Shown piece by piece: positions 1 through 49,786 of a stretch of 64,000 bases of DNA. The notes beneath the pieces were generated by a model, which worked only from the letters and a program-made list of their open reading frames with translations, had not been told where the DNA came from and ran no database searches. The position numbers were made by a program, and so were the translations under genes. Location of the stretch: the NCBI GenBank assembly GCA_032622095.1, contig CP136065.1, forward strand, positions 53,935,949-53,999,948. Direction: 5' to 3'. Source of the DNA: Siphonodentalium dalli. Its lineage: Eukaryota; Mollusca; Scaphopoda; Gadilida; Siphonodentaliidae. How positions within the stretch are numbered: position 1 is the first letter of the stretch; every line of letters begins with the position of its first letter.

Positions 1-1
1 G

Positions 2-294
2 TCACACCTTTGCTTTACCAAATGAATTCTATTATTTCCCCGGTCACAGCTATATGGTATTCAGAAAACAAATCGATTTGAGCAGAAATAGTTGTTTAAC
101 GGGTTAGTATCAATTAAGGTTGATAAACTGTGTCATTCACACCATAATTAGTTAGCCAAAAACATGCATACATATTAAGTCAGGTCGTGAGACACTCAAT
201 TATAGAAATTGCTTTGAGGACATTGTTATAATAACATTACGTAATAACCCCTTATCACTCCAGTCACACTTACGATCATTTTGTATGCCGAAAA
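2..294 (+). repeat. Left terminal inverted repeat arm
   Basis: It begins TCACACCTTTGCTTTACC and matches the reverse complement of 7991-8284 with scattered substitutions and small indels. It is more diverged than the inner arms. Bases 300-460 just inside it have no counterpart in the right arm. Confidence 0.85.
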
Positions 295-463
295 CTCCAG
301 GTAGCACCGATGATGTAACATTATATCACTGCTATTGTGCCAATGATAGGTTCAGACATGTTCTATGTTTAGAAATAGATAATCTGCAGGTGTTCACTTG
401 ACAAGAGATTTTGTACACTCAATCACAGACCAACGTGATAATACCAGCCCACACCCAACCCCC

Positions 464-493
464 AAGTTACCTATAATTCTGCTGTGGTTAAGC
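464..493 (+). repeat. J motif, copy 1 (partial)
   Basis: Starts at AAGTTACCTATAATTCTGC and lacks the first part of J. It is joined directly to CAA repeats of the ATPase poly-Q tract, so it marks the edge of a gene fragment. Confidence 0.8.
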
Positions 494-517
494 CACAACA
501 ACAACAACAACAACACC

Positions 518-548
<31 letters not shown>

Positions 549-613
549 GTCACCAAGCGACATAACATCCTGTTTTGATGATCCAATGGCCAATGTCCAT
601 GAAGATTTTATTT
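494..613 (+). pseudogene. Fragment of the ATPase gene, poly-Q tract plus about 20 following codons
   Basis: A CAA run is followed by codons matching the ATPase just before its Walker A region (the stretch around SDITSCFDDPM). It then breaks off at TTTATTTCC. It has no start, Walker motifs or zinc finger, so it cannot make a functional protein. It is bounded by J copies 1 and 2 and mirrored at 7811-7937. It is therefore older than, or was copied along with, the inversion of the arms. Confidence 0.85.
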
Positions 614-633
614 CCGATGCAAGTCATATTTCA

Positions 634-682
634 GACTAACTCCTGAAAAGTTACCTATAATTCTGCTGTGGTTAAGCAGTCC
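634..682 (+). repeat. J motif, copy 2
   Basis: Full 49-bp copy starting GACTAACTCCTGAAAAG. The 12 or so bases before it (AGTCATATTTCA) resemble those before J at the central hairpin (AGCCATATTTCC), so the conserved unit is slightly longer than 49 bp. Confidence 0.85.
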
Positions 683-1302
683 ATTATTTAGGGCATACCT
701 GTATGTAGGCCTACCAGTGGATGAATAGTCTGCCGGAGAAGTACTGTGTAGACAGGTCTTGTCGGTAAGAAAGTCAGACGAGTAGTGAAGGCTCGGCTAT
801 TAAAACATAGTAATGCGATAGCGAACATCAAACGAGTCTGCGCACGCATATCTGTCAAAGGATACAAGGGCAGTCATTGGTCAATTTATCCCCGGTGTCA
901 GCTCAGTACAATGGCAGTCATTGGTCAATTTATCCCCGGTGTCAGCTCAGTACACAATCGGCACGAAGCCGGAGGTCATAATTACTCTTACGAATGAAGA
1001 GCGTTGAACATATACGAAATTATTACACGAATGAACTGAAATTTATATTTCACATCTTACCAACAACAGATACAGACATAGTCATAGTGTTATATTATCT
1101 TACATGTACCCATGCTATGACATACTTAAAGGGGGATAATGCACACACGGTGTGTGGAATGTTAAAGTGACACGAGGTAAGGGACGTTATGTAATATTGG
1201 TGTGTGAATATTAAAGGAGCATTCTCGCTATACAAACCCCCCTCCCCACTTATAGATATATAACGAAGACGAGAATAACATGTTGATGAAGTTTATTGAA
1301 AT
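683..1302. repeat. Left copy of the gene-downstream non-coding block
   Basis: Reverse complement of 7123-7742, nearly identical. It holds a 44-bp unit repeated twice at 870-953. A 70-codon frame at 785-997 exists in both arms, but it consists largely of that doubled unit and is not supported as a gene. Nothing else is recognised. Confidence 0.8.
1292..1297 (-). terminator. Polyadenylation signal of the left outer ATPase copy
   Basis: AATAAA on the minus strand, six bases beyond the stop codon of the 1303-3069 gene. The same arrangement is found at 7128. The very compact 3' end is typical of virus-like elements. Confidence 0.6.
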
Positions 1303-2842
1303 TTAATCATTGTCTGAATCTTCGACCGTTAGATTTACTTCTAAGAGTTTCTTGAATTTTCTCATCGCTTCATCTGCAGCCCATTCATTATTATATCCGC
1401 GTTTGGTCAGTTTGACCATTTTCTTCATGATCGTGTTATGTATGGGTGATGTTTTCAATCGATACTGGTATTCTATTAATCGTCTATAACTTTTGAGAAA
1501 CAGAACAAACTCTGTGTCGATGGTATCCTCTTTTCCCGACATGCTCTCATCTCCCGAAATGCTCTCTTCTTCTTTCACATCAGTGGTGACGCGTTTCATC
1601 ATACTTTTGAATGTGTCCATCTCGTTGACACATCGCGCAGCTTTCTTAAGACCGAATACCGTTCTACTACCGACGACATTACCATCTTTTGAATCTGATA
1701 GCGTTCCTCGTTCATCTTCATCTGTATCTTCTCCGAAGAGAGTTGTTTTTGTCTCGGACATAGCTCCGTGTTCATCCGGGTCCTCAGTTAATTTTCGTTT
1801 TAACTTATTTTCTTGACACCAGTTTTTTACGTGTCTCTGAACATCATAATGATCTGCGAACAAAAGCCCGCATTCATTACAAGGGTACGACATGTCTTCT
1901 CGAATGTCTATACGTTTCTTCTTATTAATTTCATCGAGCTCACCAGGTGGCCGTATGTCGTTAGTATAGTCATTATGTTGACCCTGGGGCACAATATAAT
2001 TATATGTTATGCCCTTCTGTTGACCAGGGAGTTCTCTGTCATCGTATTTCATCGCATTCTGTTGACCCAGGGTCTCAGTGTCTTTTGTATGTTTTTTCAT
2101 CCCATTCTGTTCATCTGGGTGTTCTCTGTCTTTTTGGAGATTATATTTCATGCCATTCCATTCACCCCTATGTTGGTTCGTGTCCTCTTTTAGTACATTC
2201 TGTCGCAGACGTAATGTGTCCGGTGTTGCGGCTTTTAAATCCACAAGTAGGTAACCGTACGGTTCACTCGTCGCTTCCGAAAACTCTCGAACCATACGCT
2301 GAGGACATTCAGGATACATCTGTCTTGATAATGTTGAAATTAATCCCTTGTCGATTGGGTTATTGAACAATACCAAATATTGACAATTTCGTCGTTGCGT
2401 TGGATCTTTGTTGTAGTAGAAATTCTGGTTCAAACTTATCAAAGATAAGTTCAAATGGTGACTTCCTTCGGAATGCAAATCATTAACTCTCTGGTCTTTT
2501 GATGAAGTTTGCATCAAGTCATCGAGTATAACTAGATTTTTATACCGGGGGTTGATAAGCGAATCCAAGTTTGCTGGTATTCCTCGTATAAAGTTGACCT
2601 GAGGGGTGACGGTATACTTTAATTCGTCATATAGGGGCTGCCAATATTTATAAAACCATATTATTCTGTCAGGTGCGGGTGATATTTTTGAGGCAGACTT
2701 TTGTAGTAAGGTTTTCACGAAGTATGTCTTACCACAAGATGTCGGTCCACTTACACATGCCGTGAATGGATGCTTGAAAATAAAATCTTCATGGACATTG
2801 GCCATTGGATCATCAAAGCAGGATGTTATGTCGCTTGGTGGC

Positions 2843-2899
<57 letters not shown>

Positions 2900-3069
2900 G
2901 GGTGATGATACTGTTGTTGTTGTTGTTGTTGTTGTTGTTGTGGCTGATGATACTGTTGTTGTTGCTGTTGTTGTTGTTGTTCTGAAGGCGTGTGTTTAAC
3001 TTTGATATGACGCTTCAAACTATCTTGCCAAGCATAGACACTTAAGCACTCTTCACATTGATACTTCAT
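1303..3069 (-). CDS. Zinc-finger A32-like packaging ATPase, left outer copy (L1)
   Basis: 588 codons, intact. Order: C2H2 finger at the N-terminus (C-x2-C-x12-H-x4-H, residues 5-26), a long Gln tract with Tyr-His-(Gln/His)-Pro interruptions, then a P-loop NTPase domain with Walker A GPTSCGKT and Walker B NLVILDDLM. A conserved SHHLNLSLISLNQN segment and an FNNPIDK segment follow, then a second CCHC finger, an acidic linker and a basic C-terminal helix region. This is the FtsK/HerA-superfamily packaging ATPase pattern of Polinton-type elements, which drives DNA into a capsid. That role is inferred from the family. Compared with the 5347 copy it has private changes (Leu for Gln before GQQN, KKKRID for KKNRQN, Thr for Asn in RVTND) and a different poly-Q length. 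It is read outward from its own promoter. Confidence 0.88.
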
Positions 3070-3265
3070 TTAACTAGTTCAGGCTGTCGTTCACAACGTC
3101 TCTTAGTGTTGTTTGTACTGGATACAAATTTATCACATTAGCTACAATACAACCTACCTATCCAAATGTCAATGCAATTATGAGTGATTTCAATATGAAC
3201 ACTCTATTATATAGATATGTGTAACCTGGTGACTGACATGATGATACAGTTATGCACTAAATAAA
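3070..3265 (-). promoter_or_regulatory. Promoter block of L1
   Basis: 196-bp block present upstream of all three gene copies. A TATA-like TATATAAT lies at 3206-3213 on the minus strand, 137 bp from the ATG, the same distance as in the other two copies. It ends at J copy 3. It differs by single bases from the two other copies, which agree with each other. Confidence 0.6.
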
Positions 3266-4359
3266 GGACTGCTTAACCACAGCAGAATTATAGGTAACTT
3301 TTCAGGAGTTAGTCGTTTTAACTTATTTTCTTGACACCAGTTTTTTACGTGTCTCTGAACATCATAATGATCTGCGAACAAAAGCCCGCATTCATTACAA
3401 GGGTACGACATGTCTTCTCGAATGTTTTGACGATTCTTCTTATTAATTTCATCGAGCTCACCAGGTGGCCGTATGTCGTTAGTATAGTCATTATGTTGAC
3501 CCTGGGGCACAATATAATTATATGTTATGCCCTTCTGTTGACCAGGGAGTTCTCTGTCATCGTATTTCATCGCATTCTGTTGACCCTGGGTCTCAGTGTC
3601 TTTTGTATGTTTTTTCATCCCATTCTGTTCATCTGGGTGTTCTCTGTCTTTTTGGAGATTATATTTCATGCCATTCCATTCACCCCTATGTTGGTTCGTG
3701 TCCTCTTTTAGTACATTCTGTCGCAGACGTAATGTGTCTGGTGTTGCGGCTTTTAAATCCACCAGTAGGTAACCGTACGGTTCACTCGTCGCTTCCGAAA
3801 ACTCTCGAACCATACGCTGAGGACATTCAGGATACATCTGTCTTGATAATGTTGAAATTAATCCCTTGTCGATTGGGTTATTGAACAATACCAAATATTG
3901 ACAATTTCGTCGTTGCGTTGGATCTTTGTTGTAGTAGAAATTCTGGTTCAAACTTATCAAAGATAAGTTCAAATGGTGACTTCCTTCGGAATGCAAATCA
4001 TTAACTCTCTGGTCTTTTGATGAAGTTTGCATCAAGTCATCGAGTATAACTAGATTTTTATACCGGGGGTTGATAAGCGAATCCAAGTTTGCTGGTATTC
4101 CTCGTATAAAGTTGACCTGAGGGGTGACGGTATACTTTAATTCGTCATATAGGGGCTGCCAATATTTATAAAACCATATTATTCTGTCAGGTGCGGGTGA
4201 TATTTTTGAGGCAGACTTTTGTAGTAAGGTTTTCACGAAGTATGTCTTACCACAAGATGTCGGTCCACTTACACATGCCGTGAATGGATGCTTGAAAATA
4301 AAATCTTCATGGACATTGGCCATTGGATCATCAAAGCAGGATGTTATGTCGCTTGGTGG

Positions 4360-4403
<44 letters not shown>

Positions 4404-4444
4404 GGGGGTGATGATACTGTTGTTGTTGTTGTTGTTGTTGTTGG

Positions 4445-4475
<31 letters not shown>

Positions 4476-4638
4476 GGGGGTGATGATACTGTTGTTGTTG
4501 TTGTTGTTGTGGTTGATGATACTGTTGTTGTTGTTGTTGTTGTTGTTGTTCTGAAGGCGTGTGTTTAACTTTGATATGACGCTTCAAACTATCTTGCCAA
4601 GCATAGACACTTAAGCACTCTTCACATTGATACTTCAT
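3250..4638 (-). pseudogene. 3'-truncated ATPase copy (L2) with a J-derived tail
   Basis: 462 codons. It is identical in layout to the full protein through both zinc fingers and the ATPase core, with Walker A and Walker B intact. It then breaks after the second finger (Lys-Leu-Lys-Arg), where J copy 3 begins. The last 20 or so residues are translated from J and the adjoining L1 promoter sequence and are hydrophobic. The acidic linker and basic C-terminus are missing. At informative positions it agrees with the 5347 copy, not with L1. Its poly-Q tract has extra interruptions. Because the ATPase core is whole, a truncated protein could still be made from its own promoter. Whether it is expressed cannot be seen. 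Confidence 0.85.
3266..3314 (-). repeat. J motif, copy 3, at the L1/L2 junction
   Basis: Full 49-bp J. It separates the L1 promoter from the broken 3' end of L2: the coding sequence of L2 runs straight into J and is read through it to a stop. Confidence 0.9.
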
Positions 4639-4834
4639 TTAACTAGTTCAGGCTGTCGTTCACAACGTCTCTTAGTGTTGTTTGTACTGGATACAAATTT
4701 ATCACATTAGCTACAATACAACCTACCTATCCAAATGTCAATGCAATTATGAGTGATTTCAATATGAACACTCTATTATATAGATATGTGTAACCAGGTG
4801 ACTGACATGATGATACAGTTATGCACTAAATAAT
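4639..4834 (-). promoter_or_regulatory. Promoter block of L2
   Basis: Same 196-bp block as upstream of the other copies. TATA-like motif at 4775-4782 (minus), 137 bp before the ATG. It is the mirror image of 5151-5346. Confidence 0.6.
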
Positions 4835-4883
4835 GGACTGCTTAACCACAGCAGAATTATAGGTAACTTTTCAGGAGTTAGTC
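4835..4883 (-). repeat. J motif, copy 4, left flank of the central hairpin
   Basis: Full copy that pairs perfectly with J copy 5 across the centre of symmetry. Confidence 0.9.
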
Positions 4884-5101
4884 GGAAATATGGCTTGTTG
4901 CCATTCATCGGAAAGCTCTCACCGCCGGCGGCGACGGCGGCGGCGACGGTATTGCGGTATTTTACTGCGGCGGCGGTGCCGCCGCCGCCGCCGGGGTCCG
5001 CCGCCGGCGGACCCCCGCAGTAAAATACCGCAATGCCGCCGCCGCCGCCGTCGCCGCCGGCGGTGAGAGCTTTCCGATGAATGGCAACAAGCCATATTTC
5101 C
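4884..5101. other. GC-rich T/Y-shaped hairpin at the palindrome centre
   Basis: The outer stem is 4884-4970 against 5015-5101. It pairs almost perfectly about 4992.5 and continues into J copies 4 and 5. Two mismatches lie near 4946-4950. Inside the stem are two independent small palindromes side by side. One is 4971-4984 (CGGCGG-TG-CCGCCG). The other is 4993-5015 (an 11-bp arm GGGGTCCGCCG, one spacer base, and its complement). A long stem capped by two short arms is the topology of parvovirus/AAV-type inverted terminal repeats. Local GC is far above the surrounding DNA. The structure is read directly from the sequence. The function is inferred. Confidence 0.85.
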
Positions 5102-5150
5102 GACTAACTCCTGAAAAGTTACCTATAATTCTGCTGTGGTTAAGCAGTCC
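5102..5150 (+). repeat. J motif, copy 5, right flank of the central hairpin
   Basis: Full 49-bp copy, mirror of copy 4, followed by the right-arm promoter block. Confidence 0.9.
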
Positions 5151-5346
5151 ATTATTTAGTGCATAACTGTATCATCATGTCAGTCACCTGGTTACACATA
5201 TCTATATAATAGAGTGTTCATATTGAAATCACTCATAATTGCATTGACATTTGGATAGGTAGGTTGTATTGTAGCTAATGTGATAAATTTGTATCCAGTA
5301 CAAACAACACTAAGAGACGTTGTGAACGACAGCCTGAACTAGTTAA
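5151..5346 (+). promoter_or_regulatory. Promoter block of the right ATPase copy
   Basis: TATATAAT at 5203-5210, 137 bp before the ATG. It is the reverse complement of 4639-4834. The left and right copies thus form a divergent promoter pair separated by the hairpin. Confidence 0.6.
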
Positions 5347-5509
5347 ATGAAGTATCAATGTGAAGAGTGCTTAAGTGTCTATGCTTGGCAAGATAGTTTG
5401 AAGCGTCATATCAAAGTTAAACACACGCCTTCAGAACAACAACAACAACAACAACAACAACAGTATCATCAACCACAACAACAACAACAACAACAGTATC
5501 ATCACCCCC

Positions 5510-5583
<74 letters not shown>

Positions 5584-7122
5584 CCACCAAGCGACATAAC
5601 ATCCTGCTTTGATGATCCAATGGCCAATGTCCATGAAGATTTTATTTTCAAGCATCCATTCACGGCATGTGTAAGTGGACCGACATCTTGTGGTAAGACA
5701 TACTTCGTGAAAACCTTACTACAAAAGTCTGCCTCAAAAATATCACCCGCACCTGACAGAATAATATGGTTTTATAAATATTGGCAGCCCCTATATGACG
5801 AATTAAAGTATACCGTCACCCCTCAGGTCAACTTTATACGAGGAATACCAGCAAACTTGGATTCGCTTATCAACCCCCGGTATAAAAATCTAGTTATACT
5901 CGATGACTTGATGCAAACTTCATCAAAAGACCAGAGAGTTAATGATTTGCATTCCGAAGGAAGTCACCATTTGAACTTATCTTTGATAAGTTTGAACCAG
6001 AATTTCTACTACAACAAAGATCCAACGCAACGACGAAATTGTCAATATTTGGTATTGTTCAATAACCCAATCGACAAGGGATTAATTTCAACATTATCAA
6101 GACAGATGTATCCTGAATGTCCTCAGCGTATGGTTCGAGAGTTTTCGGAAGCGACGAGTGAACCGTACGGTTACCTACTGGTGGATTTAAAAGCCGCAAC
6201 ACCAGACACATTACGTCTGCGACAGAATGTACTAAAAGAGGACACGAACCAACATAGGGGTGAATGGAATGGCATGAAATATAATCTCCAAAAAGACAGA
6301 GAACACCCAGATGAACAGAATGGGATGAAAAAACATACAAAAGACACTGAGACCCAGGGTCAACAGAATGCGATGAAATACGATGACAGAGAACTCCCTG
6401 GTCAACAGAAGGGCATAACATATAATTATATTGTGCCCCAGGGTCAACATAATGACTATACTAACGACATACGGCCACCTGGTGAGCTCGATGAAATTAA
6501 TAAGAAGAATCGTCAAAACATTCGAGAAGACATGTCGTACCCTTGTAATGAATGCGGGCTTTTGTTCGCAGATCATTATGATGTTCAGAGACACGTAAAA
6601 AACTGGTGTCAAGAAAATAAGTTAAAACGAAAATTAACTGAGGACCCGGATGAACACGGAGCTATGTCCGAGACAAAAACAACTCTCTTCGGAGAAGATA
6701 CAGATGAAGATGAACGGGGAACGCTATCAGATTCAAAAGATGGTAATGTCGTCGGTAGTAGAACGGTATTCGGTCTTAAGAAAGCTGCGCGATGTGTCAA
6801 CGAGATGGACACATTCAAAAGTATGATGAAACGCGTCACCAATGATGTGAAAGAAGAAGAGAGCATTTCGGGAGATGAGAGCATGTCGGGAAAAGAGGAT
6901 ACCATCGACACAGAGTTTGTTCTGTTTCTCAAAAGTTATAGACGATTAATAGAATACCAGTATCGATTGAAAACATCACCCATACATAACACGATCATGA
7001 AGAAAATGGTCAAACTGACCAAACGTGGATATAATAATGAATGGGCTGCAGATGAAGCGATGAGAAAATTCAAGAAACTCTTAGAAGTAAATCTAACGGT
7101 CGAAGATTCAGACAATGATTAA
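5347..7122 (+). CDS. Zinc-finger A32-like packaging ATPase, right copy (R)
   Basis: 591 codons, intact, and the best reference copy. C2H2 finger C5/C8/H21/H26. Gln-rich tract at about residues 30-80. Walker A G111-P-T-S-C-G-K117-T118. Walker B with D186-D187. S206-H-H and L216-N-Q-N form the third conserved ATPase block. A CCHC finger uses C400, C403, H416 and C421. The tail is acidic, then basic and probably helical. This is the packaging-ATPase family of Polintons and related viruses. Fusion to an N-terminal DNA-binding finger suggests specific recognition of the element's DNA, which is inference. Start: first ATG after the promoter, conserved in three copies. An AATAAA lies six bases after the stop. 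It is read outward from the hairpin. Confidence 0.9.
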
Positions 7123-7127
7123 ATTTC

Positions 7128-7133
7128 AATAAA
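7128..7133 (+). terminator. Polyadenylation signal of the right ATPase copy
   Basis: AATAAA starting six bases after the TAA stop. Confidence 0.6.
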
Positions 7134-7742
7134 CTTCATCAACATGTTATTCTCGTCTTCGTTATATATCTATAAGTGGGGAGGGGGGTTTGTATAGCGA
7201 GAATGCTCCTTTAATATTCACACACCAATATTACATAACGTCCCTTACCTCATGTCACTTTAACATTCCACACCCCGTGTGTGCATTATCCCCCTTTAAG
7301 TATGTCATAACATGGGTACATGTAAGATAATATAACACTATGACTATGTCTGTATCTGTTGTTGGTAAGATGTGAAATATAAATTTCAGTTCATTCGTGT
7401 AATAATTTCGTATATGTTCAACGCTCTTCATTCGTAAGAGTAATTATGACCTCCGGCTTCGTGCCGATTGTGTACTGAGCTGACACCGGGGATAAATTGA
7501 CCAATGACTGCCATTGTACTGAGCTGACACCGGGGATAAATTGACCAATGACTGCCCTTGTATCCTTTGACAGATATGCGTGCGCAGACTCGTTTGATGT
7601 TCGCTATCGCATTACTATGTTTTAATAGCCGAGCCTTCACTACTCGTCTGACTTTCTTACCGACAAGACCTGTCTACACAGTACTTCTCCGGCAGACTAT
7701 TCATCAACTGGTAGGCCTACATACAGGTATGCCCTAAATAAT
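7134..7742. repeat. Right copy of the gene-downstream non-coding block
   Basis: Reverse complement of the left block at 683-1291, with about 1 percent difference in the stretches compared. It includes the same doubled 44-bp unit. No gene is recognised. Confidence 0.8.
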
Positions 7743-7791
7743 GGACTGCTTAACCACAGCAGAATTATAGGTAACTTTTCAGGAGTTAGTC
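7743..7791 (-). repeat. J motif, copy 6
   Basis: Full 49-bp copy, mirror of copy 2. It borders the ATPase gene fragment at 7811-7937. Confidence 0.85.
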
Positions 7792-7810
7792 TGAAATATG
7801 ACTTGCATCG

Positions 7811-7876
7811 GAAATAAAATCTTCATGGACATTGGCCATTGGATCATCAAAGCAGGTTGTTATGTCGCTTGGTGAC

Positions 7877-7907
<31 letters not shown>

Positions 7908-7937
7908 GGTGTTGTTGTTGTTGTTGTTGTTGTTGTC
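7811..7937 (-). pseudogene. Mirrored ATPase gene fragment
   Basis: Reverse-strand counterpart of 494-613: a poly-Q tract and the codons just after it, without start or Walker motifs. It lies between J copies 6 and 7. Its Gln tract has a CAC interruption at the same place as in the left fragment. Confidence 0.85.
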
Positions 7938-7970
7938 GCTTAACCACAGCAGAATTATAGGTAACTTTTC
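7938..7970 (-). repeat. J motif, copy 7 (partial)
   Basis: Matches the partial copy at 464-493. It stops at ...AACTTTTC, after which the terminal repeat region begins. Confidence 0.8.
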
Positions 7971-7990
7971 GTCATCTTCATTATATTGAA

Positions 7991-8284
7991 ATTTTTGGTA
8001 TACAAAATGAGCGTAAGTGTGAATGGAGTGATAAGGGGTTATTACGTAATGTTGTTATAACAATGTCATCATAGCAATTTGTATAATTGAGTGTCTCACG
8101 ACCTGACGTAATATGTATGCATGTTTTTGGCTAACTAATTATCGTGTGAATGACACAGTTTATCAACCTTAATTGATACTAACCCGTTAAACAACTATTT
8201 CTGCTCAAATCGATATGTTTTCTGAATACCATATAGCTGTGACCGGGGAAATAATAGAATTCATTTGGTAAAGCAAAGGTGTGA
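7991..8284 (-). repeat. Right terminal inverted repeat arm
   Basis: Reverse complement of 2-294. Sequence to the right of 8284 no longer pairs with the left arm as far as can be seen (one base only). The flank directly after it (8285 onward) is ordinary AT-rich DNA. Confidence 0.85.
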
Positions 8285-9480
8285 AAGACACATTGTTAAC
8301 ACCAATGTGGCGTGTGTGATTGAGTGTACATCGCTCATGTTCCATGTAAAAATGGCTGAGATTAAATCATCATTCATTCAATATGACAATTCATTCTGGA
8401 GGGTTCTAATTTCACATTACAATTTTCGACCGTTAGGGATTCAACATAGTACATTTCAATACTTCCAATAATTGACGAAAATACACGCCTGTCATATACT
8501 CAATAACTTCATATAGAGATAAGTAAAGAATAAACGCTCTTTATTATTTATGTAAAAAGTAATGGTGTCTATTTTCAGGTATGACAATTATATGAACTGC
8601 GTCCGTTAAACACTGGAATGTATGCATTCATACCGTTGGTCACAATGTCCAACATTACAGCGACTGTCCATACACATATAATTGGTATAAAGATATTTCT
8701 AAACATCGATTAATAAATACATTGAAACATTGGTTGAACAAAAAAATAACGAAAGATATTACGCGCAAATAATTTAACATTCGATATTTTTTAATATCGA
8801 GATTATCAGAAACCGAAAAACTCGTTATAAATTTTTTATTTAAACTTTTTTTTAGAGAAATAATTTTGAGGGTTTTGAAATTTTTTCTTTTGAAATTTTG
8901 GGGTTTTAAAATTTTTTGGAAGTTTTGAAATTTTTTGGAAAAAATAATTTTAGGGTTTTGAAATTTTTTGGAAAAAATAAATTTTGGAATTTTTTAATTT
9001 TTTTTTGGGTTTTGATATTTTGGAAGTTTTGGGAATATTTTAGTACAAACAATTTTAGACCCCAAGATTCTATTTTTAGATGTGACTCTAACGAGGCATC
9101 TATTCTTCTCTTGTCATCTATATATATAAACAAGGAGGATCTGTTCGGATTTTTCTCTCAGACCCCTGGACCGAGTTCAACCAAATTTGGTGTGGTGACC
9201 CGGGGTACCCTGGCAGATGTTATAATTGTGTTAATTTTTCAATATTTGGAATTAAAAAAAAAAAAAAAAAAAAAAAATTGGTTTTGTTAAATTGAGGAAG
9301 GAATTCGATCTAAAAAAAAATTAAATTAAAACAATATATATAAATCTAAATATTTCAGTGATCAAAATGTGCTTGAAGCGCACACAGGGGTCGCCGCTAA
9401 ATAAAGACTCTGTCTAAGATCAAAATGTGTGCGAAGTCCCAAAAATGGGGCCAAAGGTATCTCCGATTCTGAATATAGGC
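8285..9480. other. AT-rich non-coding flank with T-rich degenerate repeats
   Basis: No gene is seen. 8820-9045 is low-complexity T/G-rich sequence with recurring GAAATTTTTTGGAA phrases. An A-run lies near 9255-9277. 9113-9222 (around AACAAGGAGGATCTG and CAAATTTGGTGTGG) resembles a fragment of the degenerate-array families described at 12228 and 59190. Confidence 0.5.
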
Positions 9481-30530: not shown

Positions 30531-33025
30531 TGTGTGTGTGGGTGTGGGGAGTTCTACATACATAATACTACCCACGCACTATGCTGCTCATACATTTTAT
30601 AAGCAGTTTATTGTTTATATTTTCGGACAATGCGATGAATTTCCTGATAAATTGCCAGGAAATTTTTCCCAGTCATTACTGTGTGTGAAATATTCTTCGA
30701 ACAAGAACTCACAGGGGCGTTCAATTACTGGGGCGTTTTACAATATGCGATACTGTGGAACAAATATTCTACAGGAGATTAACGTTTATTTTGTTAGGTC
30801 ATGTTTTCCTATCAAAGGGGACCTGCCAATTTCAACAGGAATCTACATCATTATCCCCCCCCCGTCGCTGGAGTATAATTACAATGAGTATATATACTGT
30901 CTATTATTAATCAACGCCATGCCATCTTCGGCCGTTATCAATGACTTGGTATTCACATCACACTCTGGGGGAAACGTAGTAACGTACATATTCAAAACTA
31001 TAGAGCTAAATGCATAAGGCATTTCATAACGAATTAATGGACAACAGGAAATTGACATCCGGATCGTCCTTCCATCACCATAGATTTGCCTTATTTCCAT
31101 ACAACTCTTGGGATTTCTGTAATGGCATGCAGTTGATACAGAGCCACATGAATCACTGATGTTTTGCTTGATGATTCCATTGTATGCTCACATGTGTTGC
31201 CGCCTATTGTGCATAACAACGACCATATATACATGCCTCTCTGCTGTGTCATTTCAGATGATCAAGAATTTCTCGATTATATGTCAATGGTATGTCCTCT
31301 GGGTGTGAATGAGATTTGATCTTACTGTGTTTGAATAACCGTTGCAAGGTGAGGTTATTATCACATTTACATGACTTGACTTGAAACAATTTTTATTTGC
31401 ATAATATACAAAAGGGATTGGGGCACAAGTTTTTGCAACTTATGAAGCCCCTCTCCTAATTCAATATAATAACACACATGTGATCAAAATGACGGTACAA
31501 ACGTATTTACATGGTGATAAGTTATGAGAGATATAGTGTGTAGTGCCTTCCAGATATGATCATACATGAGGTTTCTTGGCTGTGAGAAAATTTGTATTTA
31601 AAGAATGTCACTACATAATGAATTTTGGTATGATTGACAAGTGCCAATATATTATTTATTCTTAGTACTTTTATGTTGGCTGTAAAATATAATGGTACAC
31701 TTGATTTGTTTTCTATTTTTGTTTTTGTTTTGCTCTGGAAGGCAATAAAGAGAATAAATCAGAATGAGATTTTTTTTTTATACATTTACATTACCCTCTT
31801 GTTCTGTCGAAATCTAAGCCCAATATAAAATATTGCTACATTCTCACCCTTTCTCGACCCCATTTTGGGCCACTCTTTGATTTGGTTTTAAACAATTTTT
31901 TTGTTGACAATTTTGGTAATTACTATTTTTCTCACACCTTGTTTAATTACATTGCAATGTATAACCAATCAGTGAAATGTTATCAAATTGAGCACTTTCG
32001 AAGCGCATGCTATGCTGTATAGTAGCATACTGCTTCAGTATCCAGAACAGACCATGGTGGTTTCTGTTGGTAAAATAAAAATAATATAGAAGAGAATGCA
32101 TTGGTACATAGTTTTTCGCAAAATTTCAGGAAGATCCAGTCATGGAAGGATTAAGCCAAATCACTATGGTCCAGACTTAGGCTATATTCAGTGCTGCAAA
32201 TTTGCGAGTAATAAACCACGGAGTTTGGTTTGGGCAACGTAAATACCACAAGTGCATTATTGCACGATTTATTCTTGGCAAATATCCGAAGGTTAATTCA
32301 TAGAAAATATCAGCTATGCAATCGCTTATGGGAGTATAGAGATTTTACTGCCATGTATGACGGTGTAGTTAACTCTTGTGATTATGCTTTTTGTTAGCAG
32401 TGTGTTGTCCCTAATCTATAACATCATCTGCAACAAATTGCCGAAACATGTCAGACAAATTTGCCATTGTGTGGTTGTAGCCTTTTAATGAGGAAGAACT
32501 TGCGTTACATAACATACTTACGTGTAAATACGAGTAAATTGCATGAAAGAAGCTATTTATGTCAGGGTGTCGATACGGATACTCATTGTAAGAGTAATTC
32601 ACCAGGCGAAAGTACGGTAACTATACTATGAGAGACTAGTTAATTGAGCTACTGCCATACCACACCGACGGCTACTCCGGCAGTTTTTGGCGCATCACAA
32701 TCACGCATTCTTGTCTGTCATTTGAATAAAGCGGAGCTAGGCCATTATAGGAGTTATCCAGGATAATTGACTTCAATACGAAGAGTGCGCTTCCGGTAAT
32801 CTGTCAACTTATTGTTTGGGGGTGGATGTTCAAGTACGTGTTCTTGTATGTTCGGCAATTGTACAATGCATGCACAAATGGACCAAGAAGTGATTCACGC
32901 AGGATTGACGATTCGAACACTGACTACCGGACACGGGCGTGTTCGGGGTGAGTGAGAATTCAAACCCGCGAACACGACATACAGCTCGCAGCCAAGTTAT
33001 CGGTGTTCGGTCTTGGCAAGCTACC
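30531..33025. other. Mostly unrecognised non-coding sequence
   Basis: A 161-codon frame (30532-31017) has no recognisable domain. 31390-31460 shares GGATTGGGGCACAAGTT and following sequence with 63439-63512, a dispersed repeat. Confidence 0.4.
32087..32154 (-). mobile_element. Remnant of a hairpin-cassette TTAA element
   Basis: On the minus strand it starts TTAATCCTTCCATGACTGGA and ends in CCAATGCATTCTCTT, the first bases of the 69-bp hairpin. It matches the outer end found at 39118. Confidence 0.65.
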
Positions 33026-35174
33026 GTAGCGAACTACCAAGAATGCGGATTTTAATATACACCAAGACGCTGGCAACCGTTAGCGAACTACCAAGAACGC
33101 GGCTTCGAATATACACCATGACGCTGGCCACCGTTAGCGAACTACAAAGAGCTCGGATTCGAATATACATCAAGATGCTAGCCATCGTTAGCAAACTACC
33201 AAGAACGCGGCTTCGAATATACACCAATACGCTGGCTACCATTTGGGAACTACCAAGAGCACGGATTCGAATATACACCAAGACGCTGGCCACCGTTAGC
33301 GAACTACAAAGTGCTCGGATTCGAATATACATAAAGATGCTAGCCATCGTTAGCAAACTACCAAGAATGCGGCTTCGAATGTACATCAAGACGCTGGCTA
33401 CCATTTGGGAACTACCAAGAGCACGGATTCGAATATACACCAAGACGCTGGCCACCGTTAGCGAACTACAAAGAGCTCGGATTCGAATATGCATCAAGAT
33501 GCTAGCCATCGTTAGTAACTACCAAGAACGCGGCTTCGAATGTACATCAAGACGCTGGCTACCATTTGGGAACTACCAAGAGCACGGATTCGAATATACA
33601 TCAAGACGCTGGCCACCGTTAGTAACTACCAAGAACGCGACTTCGAATGTACATCAAGACGCTGGCTACCATTTGGGAACTACCAAGAGCACGGATTCGA
33701 ATATACATCAAGACGCTGGCCACCGTTAGCGAACTACAAAGAGATCGGATTCGAATATACATCAAGATGCTAGCCATCGTTAGTAAACTACCAAGAACGC
33801 GGCTTCGAATATACATCAAGACGCTGGCTACCATTTGGGAACTACCAAGAGCACGGATTCGAATATACACCAAGACGCTGGCCACCGTTAGCTAACTACA
33901 AAGAGCTCGGATTCGAATATACATCAAGATGCTAGCCATCGTTGGCAAACTACCAAGAACGCGGCTTCGAATATACACCAAGACGCTGGCTACCATTTGG
34001 GAACCACCAAGATCACGGATTCGAATATACACCAAGACGCTGGCCACCGTTAGCGAACTACAAAGAGCTCGGATTCGGATATACATCAAGATGCTAGCCA
34101 TCGTTAGCAAACTACCAAGAACGCGGCTTCGAATATACATCAAGACGCTGGCTACCATTTAGGAACTACCAAGAGCACGGATTCGAATATACACCAAGAC
34201 GCTGGCCACCGTTAGCGAACTACAAAGAGCTCGGGTTCGAATATACATTAAGATGTTAGCCATTGTTAGCAAACTACCAAGAACGCGGCTTCGAATATAC
34301 ATCAAGACGCTGGCTACCATTTGGGAACTACCAAGAGCACGGATTCGAATATACACCAAGACACTGGCCACCGTTAGCTAACTACAAAGAGCTCGGATTC
34401 GAATATACATCAAGATGCTAGCCATCGTTAGCAAACTACCAAGAACGCGGCTTCGAATATACACCAAGACGCTGGCTACCATTTGGGAACTACCAAGATC
34501 ACGGATTCGAATATACACCAAGACGCTGGCCACCGTTAGCGAACTACAAAGAGCTCGGATTTGAATATACATCAAGATGCTAGCCATCGTTAGCAAACTT
34601 CCAAGAACGCGGCTTCGAATATACATCAAGACGCTGGCTACCATTTAGGAACTACCAAGAGCACGGATTCGAATATACACCAAGACGCTGGCCACCGTTA
34701 GCGAACTACAAAGAGCTCGGATTTGAATATACATTAAGATGTTAGCCATTGTTAGCAAACTACCAAGAACGCGGCTTCGAATATACATCAAGACGCTGGC
34801 TACCATTTGGGAACTACCAAGAGCACGGATTCGAATATACAACCAGACGCTGGGCACCGTTAGCGAACTACAAAGAGTTCGGATTCGAATATACATCAAG
34901 ATGCTAGCCATCGTTAGCAAACTACCAAGAACGCGGCTTCGAATGTACATCAAGACGCTGGCTACCATTTGGGAACTACCAAGAGCACGGATTCAAATGT
35001 ACACCAAGACGCTGGCCACCGTTAGCGAACTACAAAGTGCACGGATTCGAATATACACCAAGACGCTGGCCACCGTTAGCTAACTACAAAGAGCTCGGAT
35101 TCGAATATACATCAAGATGCTAGCCATCGTTAGCAAACTACCAAGAACGCGGCTTCGAATATACACCAATACTC
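33026..35174 (+). repeat. 54-bp satellite in a 162-bp three-unit higher order
   Basis: About 40 units of 54 bp. Three alternating types can be told apart: ...AACGCGGCTTCG...CCATTTGGGAA, ...AGCACGGATTCG...CCGTTAGCGAA and ...AGAGCTCGGATTCG...ATCGTTAGCAAA. The trimer repeats about 13 times. The period is divisible by three, so 18-residue repeat frames stay open on both strands, interrupted by single-base deletions near 33515 and 33622 and by TAA variants. Coding is not supported. Confidence 0.95.
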
Positions 35175-35292
35175 TGGTCAATAGCTTTAATTCCTCTGAC
35201 AACTATATATACATGTATATATGTTGAACCGCATTATCTTATTCGATACAAGAAAGCACATAATCAATAGACATGGCATCCGCCTTCAGAAG

Positions 35293-43312: not shown

Positions 43313-43450
43313 CGAAGGGCGAAACTAGTCCGACCAGGCATGTCACTATCGAAGTGCACGGCCACAGCGACGCAGATTCAACGCCCGTCAACTTCACGTC
43401 AGACGTCAATCAGCGGCGATGTTTCCTGACGGAGTCACGTGATTGTAAAA

Positions 43451-43801
43451 ATGACATCCGTTTTGACGTTGACGTCCCTCATCTTGTTCTTCACATTATG
43501 TTCTCAGTCATATGGCTATACACATAACATCAGTTTTTTGGCGTCGACCAGCTTTGGACACGAGGGGAAGCGTTACGCCGGTGCTTTCTTCGTCGCCCTC
43601 GATGACGTTCGTGCGAAGTTGGCGTCACGTAACGTCTCGCTCGGGTACTACTTTACGGATACCCGGAAGGATACACTGCGGGTTATCAGAGGGATGACAA
43701 AGGATTACTTCCATGATACCATCGCCTTCGTTGGACCGGATTACAAGTGTTCTATTGAAGCGACTGTAGCAGGTGCCTGGGGAAAGCCAATGATAGCCTA
43801 C
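43451..43801 (+). CDS. First coding exon of a natriuretic-peptide-receptor / receptor guanylyl cyclase-like protein
   Basis: 117 codons. Residues 1-22 form a classic signal peptide (Thr-Ser-rich start, Leu/Ile/Phe core, ending Ser-Tyr-Gly). Then comes the opening of a periplasmic-binding-protein-fold ligand-binding domain (ANF_receptor): a beta strand ISFLAS, GKRYAGAFFVALDDV and FTDTRKDTLRVIRGMT. The diagnostic FVGPDYKCSIEATVAGAW and KPMIAY close the exon, as in natriuretic peptide receptors, where Gly-Pro-x-x-x-Cys and Ala-x-x-Trp-x-x-Pro-Met-Ile are conserved. The exon ends in phase 0 at a strong donor GTGAGT (43802-43807). The ATG has A at -3. An upstream in-frame GTG at 43439 is not used by animals. 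Later exons (rest of ligand domain, TM, kinase-homology, cyclase) were not found in the window. The exact paralogue is uncertain. Confidence 0.85.
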
Positions 43802-43961
43802 GTGAGTACATCTATCTATATGTAGACTCTGGTCAACCTTGATACATATGTACAATTGGAAAATGACATGCCCGAATCAAGAGCAGTTGAAAATATCACG
43901 CCGAAATAGACTGTCATCCCAAAACTATGAGGACAATTCCAACGATTTGAAATTCAATACT

Positions 43962-47674: not shown

Positions 47675-48246
47675 GTTAGGATTAAGAGGTTAGGATTAAG
47701 AGGTTAGGATTGAGAGGTGAGGATTGAGAGGTTAGAATTAAGAAGTTAGGATTGAGAGGTTATGGTTAATATGTTAGGATTAAGATGTTAGGATTAAGTG
47801 GTTAGGATTAAGAGGTTTGGGATTGAGAGGTTATGATTGAGAATTTAGGATTAAGAGGTTCGGATTGACAGGTTATGATTAAGAAGTTATGATTAAGAAG
47901 TTAGGATTGAGAGGTCATGCTTGAGAGGTTAGGATTGAGAGGTTAAGATTGAGAGGTTAGGATTCAGAGGTTAGGATTCAGAGATTAGGATTGAGATGTT
48001 AGGATTAAGAGGTTATGATTAAGAAGTTATGACTAAGAGGTTAGGATTGAGAGGTTAGGATTAAGAAGTTATGATTGAGAGGTTATGATTGAGAGGTTAG
48101 GATTAAGAGGTTAGGATTGAGAGGTTATCATTAAGAAGTTAGGATTAAGAAGTTAGGATTGAGAGGTTAGGATTGAGAGGTTATGATTGAGAGGTTAGGA
48201 TTAAGTTGTTATGATTAAGAAGTTATGATTAAGAGGTTAGGATTGA
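47675..48246 (+). repeat. 14-bp tandem array (GGTTAGGATTRAGA)
   Basis: About 40 units with A/G variation at one position and a few 15-bp units. Each contains TTAGG, but the spacing is not that of a telomere. Confidence 0.95.
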
Positions 48247-48690: not shown

Positions 48691-48774
48691 TAGGTATCGA
48701 TGCGGCACTGGCGATATCAAGGAAGGTCCTAACTCGAGGCTCTGTCTCTCGTTCTATACTTCCGCGGTGGCACT

Positions 48775-49786
48775 CGTGCCATACCGACAAACCCATTCAC
48801 AGACTCGTGCCGTGCCGACAAATCCATTCACTCTCTCGTGTCGTACCAACAAACCCATTAACACACTCGTTTCATACAGACAAACCCATCCACACACTCG
48901 TGTAGTACCGACTAATCCATTCACACACTCGTTTCGTACCGACAAACCCATTCACGCACTCGTTTCGTACAGACAACCCCATTTACACACTGGTGTCGTA
49001 CCGAATAATCCATTCACTCTCTCGTGTCGTACCGACAGACCCGGCATCCACACACTCGTGTAGTACCGACTAATCCATTCACACACTCGTTTCGTACAGA
49101 CAAACCCATTCACACACTCGTGCCGTACCGGCAAACCCATTCACACACTCGTGTATAGTACAGACAAACCCATTCACACACTCGTGTCGTACCAACAAAC
49201 CCATTCACACACTCGTGCCGTACCGACAAACCCATTCACACACTCGTGTAGTACAGACAAACCCATTCACACACTCGTGTCGTACCGACAGACCCATTCA
49301 CACACTCGTGTAGTACCGACTAACCCATTCACACACTCGTGTCGTCCCGACTAATCAATTCACTCTCTCGTGCCGTACCGACTAATCCATTCACTCTCTC
49401 GTGCCGTACCGACAGACCCATTAACACACTCGTTTCGTACCGACTAATCCCATCACACACTCGTCTAGTACCGACTAATCAATTCACACACTCGTGTCGT
49501 ACCGACTAATCAATTCACTCTCTCGTGCCGTACCGACTAACCCATTCACACACTCGTGTCGAATCGACTAACCCGTTCACACACTCGTGTAGTACCGACT
49601 AATCCATTCAGACACTCGTGTAGTACCGACTAACCCATTCACACACACACTCGTGTAGTACCGACTAACCCATTCACACACTCGTGTCGTATCGACTAAC
49701 CCATCCACACACTCGTGTAGTACCGACTAATACATTCACACACTCGTGTCGTACCGACTAACACATTCACACACACACTCGTATCG
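48775..49786 (+). repeat. 31-bp tandem array
   Basis: About 33 units built on CACACACTCGTGTCGTACCG followed by ACTAACCCATT, with mixed variants (GACAAACCC/GACTAATCC; TCTCTCG). Open frames on both strands derive from the repeat. Confidence 0.95.

What the first reader, a model, noticed from the sequence alone, without database searches (positions are those of the whole stretch)
2..8284. A palindromic, ATPase-only, hairpin-centred mobile element
Directly seen: inverted arms about 3.3 and 5 kb long, mirrored gene order, and a packaging-type ATPase as the only recognisable gene. Known: this ATPase family belongs to Polintons/adintoviruses, which normally also carry polymerase, integrase, protease and capsid genes. 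Inference: this is a non-autonomous or novel lineage that moves as hairpin-ended DNA and integrated as an inverted dimer. I do not recognise it as a described element.
Basis: partly seen in the sequence, partly recalled or inferred. Interest (0 to 1): 0.92.

Follow-up and report, generated by a model that had tools for sequence, protein, structure and literature searches.

The report
Palindromic Polinton satellite with packaging ATPase
This stretch is one copy of a mobile DNA family that inserts as a near-perfect mirror image of itself, carrying the same DNA-packaging gene twice and sharing its ends with a larger virus-like transposon (a Polinton) in the same animal genome, which makes it a candidate transposon satellite.

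Summary
It starts 5'-AG, ends CT-3', and CTTGTC flanks both sides. Of 19 further loci fetched, 16 show both ends, and all 16 have an exact 6-bp target duplication outside the whole palindrome. So the inverted dimer is what was inserted. Arms of one copy match each other better than any other copy (12 of 12 loci compared). The terminus pattern occurs 1,356 times. Elements of about 16 kb share these ends; 6 of 11 listed hold an open PolB frame, and those 6 have 6-bp target duplications. Best explanation: a non-autonomous Polinton derivative that depends on those elements, with arms copied from each other through a snap-back form. Its ATPase is not the partner's (31% identity). Snap-back copying and a packaging role are inferred. 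Seven literature searches listed no palindromic Polinton that I recognised; Repbase was not available.

The parts
1..9109 (.). The inserted palindromic element; its first 817 bp lie left of the window (C5:53935132-53935948)
   Evidence: termini and CTTGTC on both sides
7992..9109 (-). Right terminal repeat, shared with the 16-kb Polinton-type element (91% and 87%)
1..294 (+). Inner part of the left terminal repeat; the rest is in L022:8683-9499
9110..9115 (.). Right copy of the 6-bp target duplication CTTGTC; the left copy is outside the window
5347..7122 (+). ATPase gene of the right arm, 591 aa, open: C2H2 finger, polyQ, A32-type ATPase core, C2H2 finger, C-terminal part
1303..3069 (-). ATPase gene of the left arm, 588 aa, open
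3250..4638 (-). Frame of the truncated ATPase copy in the extra partial unit, 462 aa; its tail runs into the neighbouring repeat
4898..5087 (.). GC-rich centre; folds as stem with two ears
5088..5172 (+). 85-bp repeat at the central side of the right ATPase unit
7721..7805 (-). Inverted 85-bp repeat at the outer side of the right ATPase unit (95% to 5088-5172)
620..704 (+). The same repeat at the outer side of the left ATPase unit
3313..4897 (-). Extra partial unit peculiar to this copy; joined to the left unit at about 3313-3315
7812..7970 (-). Remnant: inverted 5' fragment of the ATPase gene plus a 33-bp piece of the 85-bp repeat
464..613 (+). The mirrored remnant in the left arm

Best explanation
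A non-autonomous, palindromic derivative of the Polinton/Maverick group, living as a satellite of 16-kb Polinton-type elements in the same genome. A copy is: helper-type terminal repeat - ATPase unit - centre - inverted ATPase unit - inverted terminal repeat. SHOWN: the whole palindrome is the inserted unit; its ends are those of the 16-kb elements; the arms of one copy are nearly identical while copies differ; most larger indels are mirrored in both arms. INFERRED: the 16-kb elements supply polymerase and integrase in trans; the displaced palindromic single strand snaps back on its centre, so that one arm is copied from or repaired against the other in each cycle; integrase inserts the double-stranded palindrome. 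The retained ATPase, from another Polinton lineage than the helper's own, most likely serves packaging or transfer of the satellite (least certain step).
For: Exact 6-bp target duplications outside the palindrome in 16 of 16 loci with both ends in view (of 19 fetched) and in the window copy, and in 3 of 4 further 8-kb elements. Ends shared over 1,042-1,145 bp of the 16-kb element's terminal repeat, 82-95% identical, in 16 of 16 loci, though in 6 of them the match misses the outermost 14-53 bp. 689 + 667 termini in the genome, reversed control 0. Six of 7 PolB loci on C1 up to 147.9 Mb lie in 16-kb facing pairs, and those 6 elements have exact 6-bp duplications. Arms within a locus differ 0.05-0.48%, nearest other locus 0.88-2.5% (12 of 12); 17 of 17 left-right end pairs are sisters; 113 of 127 gap runs mirrored. 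Seven centres picked without regard to the ATPase are all inverted repeats, 6 of them continuous. ATPase core matches viral packaging NTPases; bivalve relatives are predicted together with chromodomain, rve or adenovirus-type protease.
Against: No extrachromosomal form seen. The partner's integrase, protease and capsid were not found: none of the 150 scored rve matches falls in the 11 listed 16-kb pairs on C1, Peptidase_C5 gave none (its control rang nowhere), capsid not searched. The partner's own ATPase is only 31% identical and points inward, so the satellite is not a simple end-duplication of it. The arms' likeness could also come from gene conversion after insertion. Only 14 of 24 arms keep an open ATPase frame, and the between-copy pN/pS of 0.61 is weak selection. 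Only 3 of the 7 unbiased centres carry the ATPase and its 5' region. L038 has one ATPase arm only.
Confidence: 0.75

Rival explanations
1. Arms are homogenised on the chromosome: the element transposes as an ordinary double-stranded DNA with very long inverted repeats, and gene conversion after insertion keeps the arms alike. Same element, no snap-back copying.
For: In the window copy the outer ends differ by 2.8% but the inner units much less (13 substitutions in 1,776 bp) and the extra unit not at all outside the tip, as conversion acting mostly near the centre would give. The ATPase is far less diverged between copies (0.5%) than the ends (about 7%).
Against: Within-locus divergence is about equally low in ATPase (0.15%), flank (0.11%) and outermost segment (0.34%), right up to ends next to unique host DNA; 113 of 127 gap runs mirrored.
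Confidence: 0.3
2. Assembly artefact: fold-back reads or two haplotypes joined head to head made the mirror.
For: Long palindromes are classic assembly problems; no raw reads were available to me.
Against: A fold-back copies host flank and would not stop at AG...CT termini with a private 6-bp duplication in 16 of 16 loci. Units within the window copy differ by substitutions and a 42-bp indel.
Confidence: 0.02
3. Inverted duplication after insertion: a monomer inserted and was later duplicated in inverted orientation together with flank.
For: The arms looked as if they contained host flank when only the window was seen.
Against: The supposed flank is the terminal repeat shared with the 16-kb elements, and the target duplications lie outside the full palindrome.
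Confidence: 0.02
4. Parvovirus-like rolling-hairpin replicon: the GC-rich centre is a hairpin telomere at a dimer junction.
For: The centre has a stem plus two self-complementary ears in the window and in 7 other centres (L025, L026, L032, L039, L041, L043, L047) of 27 sequences scanned.
Against: No Rep-like frame; outer ends and target duplications are Polinton-type; L033 and L035 have other centres and a second family has a plain loop. The two ear orders only reflect the strand read, so they are no flip/flop evidence.
Confidence: 0.07

Closest known systems
Polintons/Mavericks (polintoviruses), autonomous
   Same: 6-bp target duplication and AG...CT ends (as recalled for Polintons), long terminal inverted repeat, packaging ATPase; ends shared with PolB-bearing 16-kb elements of the same genome
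   Different: No PolB, integrase, protease or capsid frame; half the size; the whole element is one inverted repeat with the ATPase gene twice
Non-autonomous DNA transposons (deletion derivatives, MITEs) in general
   Same: Keep the ends of an autonomous partner and have lost its genes
   Different: Full palindrome, arms matched copy by copy, and an open gene from another lineage
Snap-back defective DNA of adenovirus incomplete particles (recalled, Daniell 1976; I saw only the citation in PMC12090768)
   Same: Inverted duplication of a terminal segment in a protein-primed DNA virus related to Polintons
   Different: Here integrated, dispersed and inherited; the inner gene is not from the helper's end
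Phage satellites that redirect helper packaging (PICI, P4; recalled)
   Same: Small element with a packaging gene and a presumed larger helper
   Different: Animal genome, palindromic; helper dependence and packaging not shown
Foldback elements such as Galileo (recalled; name seen in a reference of PMC8504770)
   Same: Very long inverted repeats
   Different: Other transposase class (recalled); here a viral packaging ATPase sits in each arm and the ends are Polinton-type

Membership tests
Polinton/Maverick, autonomous | protein-primed PolB and rve integrase encoded | tested here: not met
   no such frame in the window element or in 4 right arms examined
Polinton/Maverick, autonomous | protease and capsid genes encoded | tested here: not met
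   ATPase is the only non-overlapping ATG frame of 90 aa or more in 4 right arms
Non-autonomous Polinton | 6-bp target duplication | tested here: met
   16 of 16 plus the window; 3 of 4 further 8-kb elements, the fourth displaced by 3 bp. That Polintons make 6-bp duplications is recalled; the founding paper is not held
Non-autonomous Polinton | ends shared with a PolB-bearing element of the same genome | tested here: met
   1,042-1,145 bp of terminal repeat shared in 16 of 16 loci; PolB in 6 of 11 listed 16-kb pairs on C1
Non-autonomous Polinton | partner encodes an rve integrase | tested here: inconclusive
   150 best rve matches of 4,228 candidates, none in the 11 listed pairs on C1; list swamped by other elements
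Non-autonomous Polinton | partner encodes adenovirus-type protease | tested here: inconclusive
   0 matches, and the control rang nowhere
Non-autonomous Polinton | partner encodes a double jelly-roll capsid protein | not tested
   no search made
Non-autonomous Polinton | ATPase belongs to the DJR-virus packaging family | tested here: met
   Pox_A32 over cut-off; fold matches B204; relatives joined to integrase or protease segments
Parvovirus-like rolling-hairpin replicon | Rep/NS1 nickase and hairpins at the outer ends | tested here: not met
   no Rep-like frame; hairpin is central, outer ends are Polinton-type
Packaging-hijack satellite | encapsidation by, or interference with, a helper | not testable with these tools
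   needs particle or expression data

The most novel reading that the evidence does not exclude
The palindrome is a true satellite of animal Polintons: a self-complementary genome that copies one arm from the other through a snap-back single strand in each cycle, borrows the helper's polymerase, integrase and capsid, and encodes its own packaging ATPase, taken from a different Polinton lineage, to draw helper capsids to its own DNA, as phage satellites do.
Probability: 0.25. Interest if true: 0.95.

Novelty: new variant of a known kind. Interest (0 to 1): 0.83.

Why it matters
Polintons look like viruses, but an extracellular form had not been detected according to the abstract of PMC7805220 (start of abstract seen). 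A dispersed palindromic derivative with matched ends, mirrored changes and clean target duplications is a natural record of how such DNA is copied: the arm-to-arm identity makes a snap-back intermediate testable. A satellite that keeps only a packaging ATPase would be indirect evidence that animal Polintons package DNA, and would extend satellite-helper conflict to animal transposons. It also shows that near-perfect palindromes of 8-9 kb persist at many places in an animal genome.

Tried and rejected
Assembly artefact and post-insertion duplication were considered and rejected on the target duplications. A flip/flop claim from the two ear orders was dropped: in a palindrome the order only depends on the strand read. 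My early idea that the arm is a direct snap-back of the helper's ATPase end was dropped after reading both ends of one helper: its ATPase is 31% identical and points inward. An early note said ATPase features occur in 5 of 7 unbiased centres; the stricter look gives 3 of 7 with ATPase and 5' region (L043, L045, L047), one with a 47-bp ATPase fragment (L042), two with part of the 3' segment (L044, L048) and one with none (L046).

Led nowhere: IMG/VR scans with the ATPase and with short DNA patterns; a search with the C-terminal part alone (none at E 0.001); PDB sequence search (zinc fingers and low-complexity matches only, none below E 0.04); rve and Peptidase_C5 searches. Requests to find the helper-type ATPase genome-wide and to count ATPase copies by an exact pattern did not complete.

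Rows left out of counts: the arm comparison and the mirrored-gap count used 12 of 19 loci; L029, L030, L033, L034, L035, L036 and L038 were left out beforehand as one-ended, rearranged or differently centred. The ends tree used 16 loci and the window as pairs, with L029, L030, L038 and the helper as single ends. The 7 centres were picked by me from the 31 listed C1 pairs of 7.1-11.1 kb, as were 4 such pairs (3 of them the same elements). The terminus search lists only the first 100 places, so size classes come from C1 alone.
Full report
WHAT WAS CLAIMED AND WHAT IS THERE. The inverted match is real: 5101-7967 against 3315-464 at 98.4%, and 7992-8284 against 294-2 at 96.2%, with ATPase frames at 5347-7122 (+), 1303-3069 (-) and a truncated one at 3250-4638 (-). 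The mirror ran to the window's first bases, so its outer limit could not be seen from the window alone. The window is G000:C5:53935949-53999948 in an assembly of 2.23 Gb and 9 contigs. The animal is not named to me; most named protein hits are bivalve, so it is probably a mollusc.

TRUE BOUNDARIES. With the left flank fetched (L022) the element runs from C5:53935132 to C5:53945057 (window 9109), 9,926 bp. It starts AGAAGAATAG and ends CTATTCTTCT, and CTTGTC lies directly outside both ends.

THE FAMILY. A genome search with 1,284 bp of the ATPase unit gave 44 matches from 40 scored of 1,611 candidates, 95-100% identical, many as divergent pairs about 2 kb apart. I fetched 19 further loci of 10 kb. 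Twelve are single palindromes of 8.4-8.9 kb by one unbroken self-reverse match (L023-L028, L031, L032, L037, L039-L041), and L033 is a shorter one of 7.4 kb; L034, L035 and L036 match in pieces or with an altered centre; L029 and L030 show one end and partial matches; L038 has one ATPase arm, with a 383-bp remnant on the other side. From the centre outwards the usual order is centre, 85-bp repeat, 5' region, ATPase, 3' region, 85-bp repeat, remnant, terminal repeat. Of the 19 loci, 16 show both termini; all 16 have an exact 6-bp target duplication, each of a different sequence; with the window that is 17 of 17. Of four more 8-kb elements, three were exact; the fourth has the six letters displaced by three bases. 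The duplications lie outside the palindrome, so it was inserted whole.

ARMS ARE COPIED FROM EACH OTHER. In 12 loci the two arms differ by 0.05-0.48%, while the nearest arm of another locus among the 12 differs by 0.88-2.5%. In the inner part of the terminal repeat, arms differ by 0.11% within and 6.8% between loci. In a tree of ends all 17 left-right pairs are sisters, though not all forks have full support; the window pair is 0.028 apart, the widest of them, so this copy is older or less homogenised. Of 127 gap runs of 15 columns or more, 113 are mirrored in both arms; 10 of the other 14 lie in the polyQ tract and most of the rest at one column, 2934. In the listed part of the terminus search, the two 35-letter ends are identical in 45 of 46 facing pairs (read by eye; the exception differs by one letter); 11 of these pairs are 16-kb elements. 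This fits a hairpin or snap-back stage in each cycle; conversion after insertion remains possible.

THE PARTNER. The terminus pattern occurs 689 times forward and 667 times reverse, reversed control 0. The 46 facing pairs among the 100 listed places, all on C1, fall into 11 of 15.6-17.4 kb, 31 of 7.1-11.1 kb and 4 under 7 kb. A PF03175 search gave 149 matches from 69 scored of 1,596 candidates. On C1 up to 147.9 Mb they make 7 PolB loci: 6 lie inside 6 of the 11 16-kb pairs, with open frames of 844-952 aa; the seventh belongs to a class of about 1,320 aa and is in no listed pair. These 6 elements have exact 6-bp target duplications. Two pieces of one were read. At one end, a 533-codon frame continuing into the PolB locus stands next to a terminal repeat whose outer 1,042 bp match the window's right end at 91% and 87%. 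At the other end, the repeat is identical over the 220 bp of overlap and is followed by the partner's own small ATPase pointing inward (its Pfam matches are all below cut-off). Sixteen of 16 palindromes share the repeat up to position 1,042-1,145 at 82-95%. The partner's integrase and protease were not found and its capsid was not searched.

THE ATPASE. The 591-aa protein has C2H2 fingers on both sides of an A32-type core. Its predicted core (pLDDT mostly about 80-90; mean of the whole model 57.5) matches the packaging NTPase B204 of Sulfolobus turreted icosahedral viruses best. Relatives share the architecture; some predicted proteins join it to chromodomain, rve or adenovirus-type protease segments. 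A Bathymodiolus contig has it beside a PolB fragment (E 8e-5, below the family cut-off). The partner's own ATPase is 31% identical over 206 residues, so the satellite's gene seems to come from another Polinton lineage. The frame is open to its C-terminus in 14 of 24 arms and in at least one arm of 10 of 12 loci. pN/pS is 0.61 between 13 copies (78 pairs) and 0.89 within loci: a weak sign of selection.

THE CENTRE. The window centre folds as a long stem with two ears. I see the same layout in 7 others of 27 sequences scanned; 8 were not found by the marker used, and one match was a marker artefact. L033 and L035 have other centres. A second, diverged ATPase family also sits as divergent pairs; the one centre read is a 601-bp inverted repeat with a 32-nt loop and no GC-rich part. 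Whether that family has the same ends or target duplications was not tested.

THE UNBIASED SAMPLE. Of 7 centres from 8-kb-class pairs picked without regard to the ATPase, 6 are continuous inverted repeats (89-96% with the asymmetric tip) and one has 273-bp arms around a 454-bp middle. Three carry the ATPase start and its 5' region. The palindromic form is wider than the ATPase cargo.

UNEXPLAINED. Between loci the ATPase differs by 0.5% but the terminal repeats by about 7%, as if the ATPase unit spread recently among end lineages. Each unit has its own 85-bp inverted repeats, whose role I do not know. The window copy's extra partial unit was probably made by fold-back copying and end joining.

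LITERATURE. Seven searches that might have shown a palindromic or solo-ATPase Polinton listed none that I recognised; only the top rows were seen. I saw passages of PMC6431247, PMC4028283, PMC10294476, PMC4046053, PMC10120064, PMC2836005, PMC6035795, PMC8504770, PMC9939771 and PMC12090768, no whole text. Repbase and most subscription papers were not available, so an earlier entry is possible.

VERDICT. A real, recent, multi-copy palindromic element of Polinton type, satellite-like; the snap-back copying and the packaging role are the open, testable parts.

Noticed in passing
L072 (C5:130153176-130153776); pairs such as C3:252236683/252238532, C4:214227685/214229541, C5:53853933/53855794: A second, diverged ATPase family (46-48% to a scallop protein) also sits as divergent pairs about 500 bp apart; one centre read is a 601-bp inverted repeat with a plain 32-nt loop.
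   Followed up: partly
L044, L048, L046 (C1:37244354, C1:70721171, C1:44363752): Palindromic or inverted-repeat centres of elements with the same termini but without the ATPase at the centre; their cargo is unknown.
   Followed up: partly
C1:137917395, C4:45381862, C2:38052324 and others: Another PolB class with frames of about 1,310-1,330 aa; the one on C1 below 147.9 Mb is in no listed terminus pair.
   Followed up: no
L001 (JACCHT010000018.1): A contig filed under a Bathymodiolus symbiont MAG carries the bivalve-type ATPase and a PolB fragment, so it looks like host or mobile-element contamination.
   Followed up: partly
window 33020-35177, 47675-48244, 48771-49774: Long tandem arrays with periods of 54/162, 14 and 31 bp.
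   Followed up: no
window 43430-43825: An open frame of 131 codons that by eye resembles the start of an ANF-receptor-type extracellular domain, possibly a host exon (not searched).
   Followed up: no
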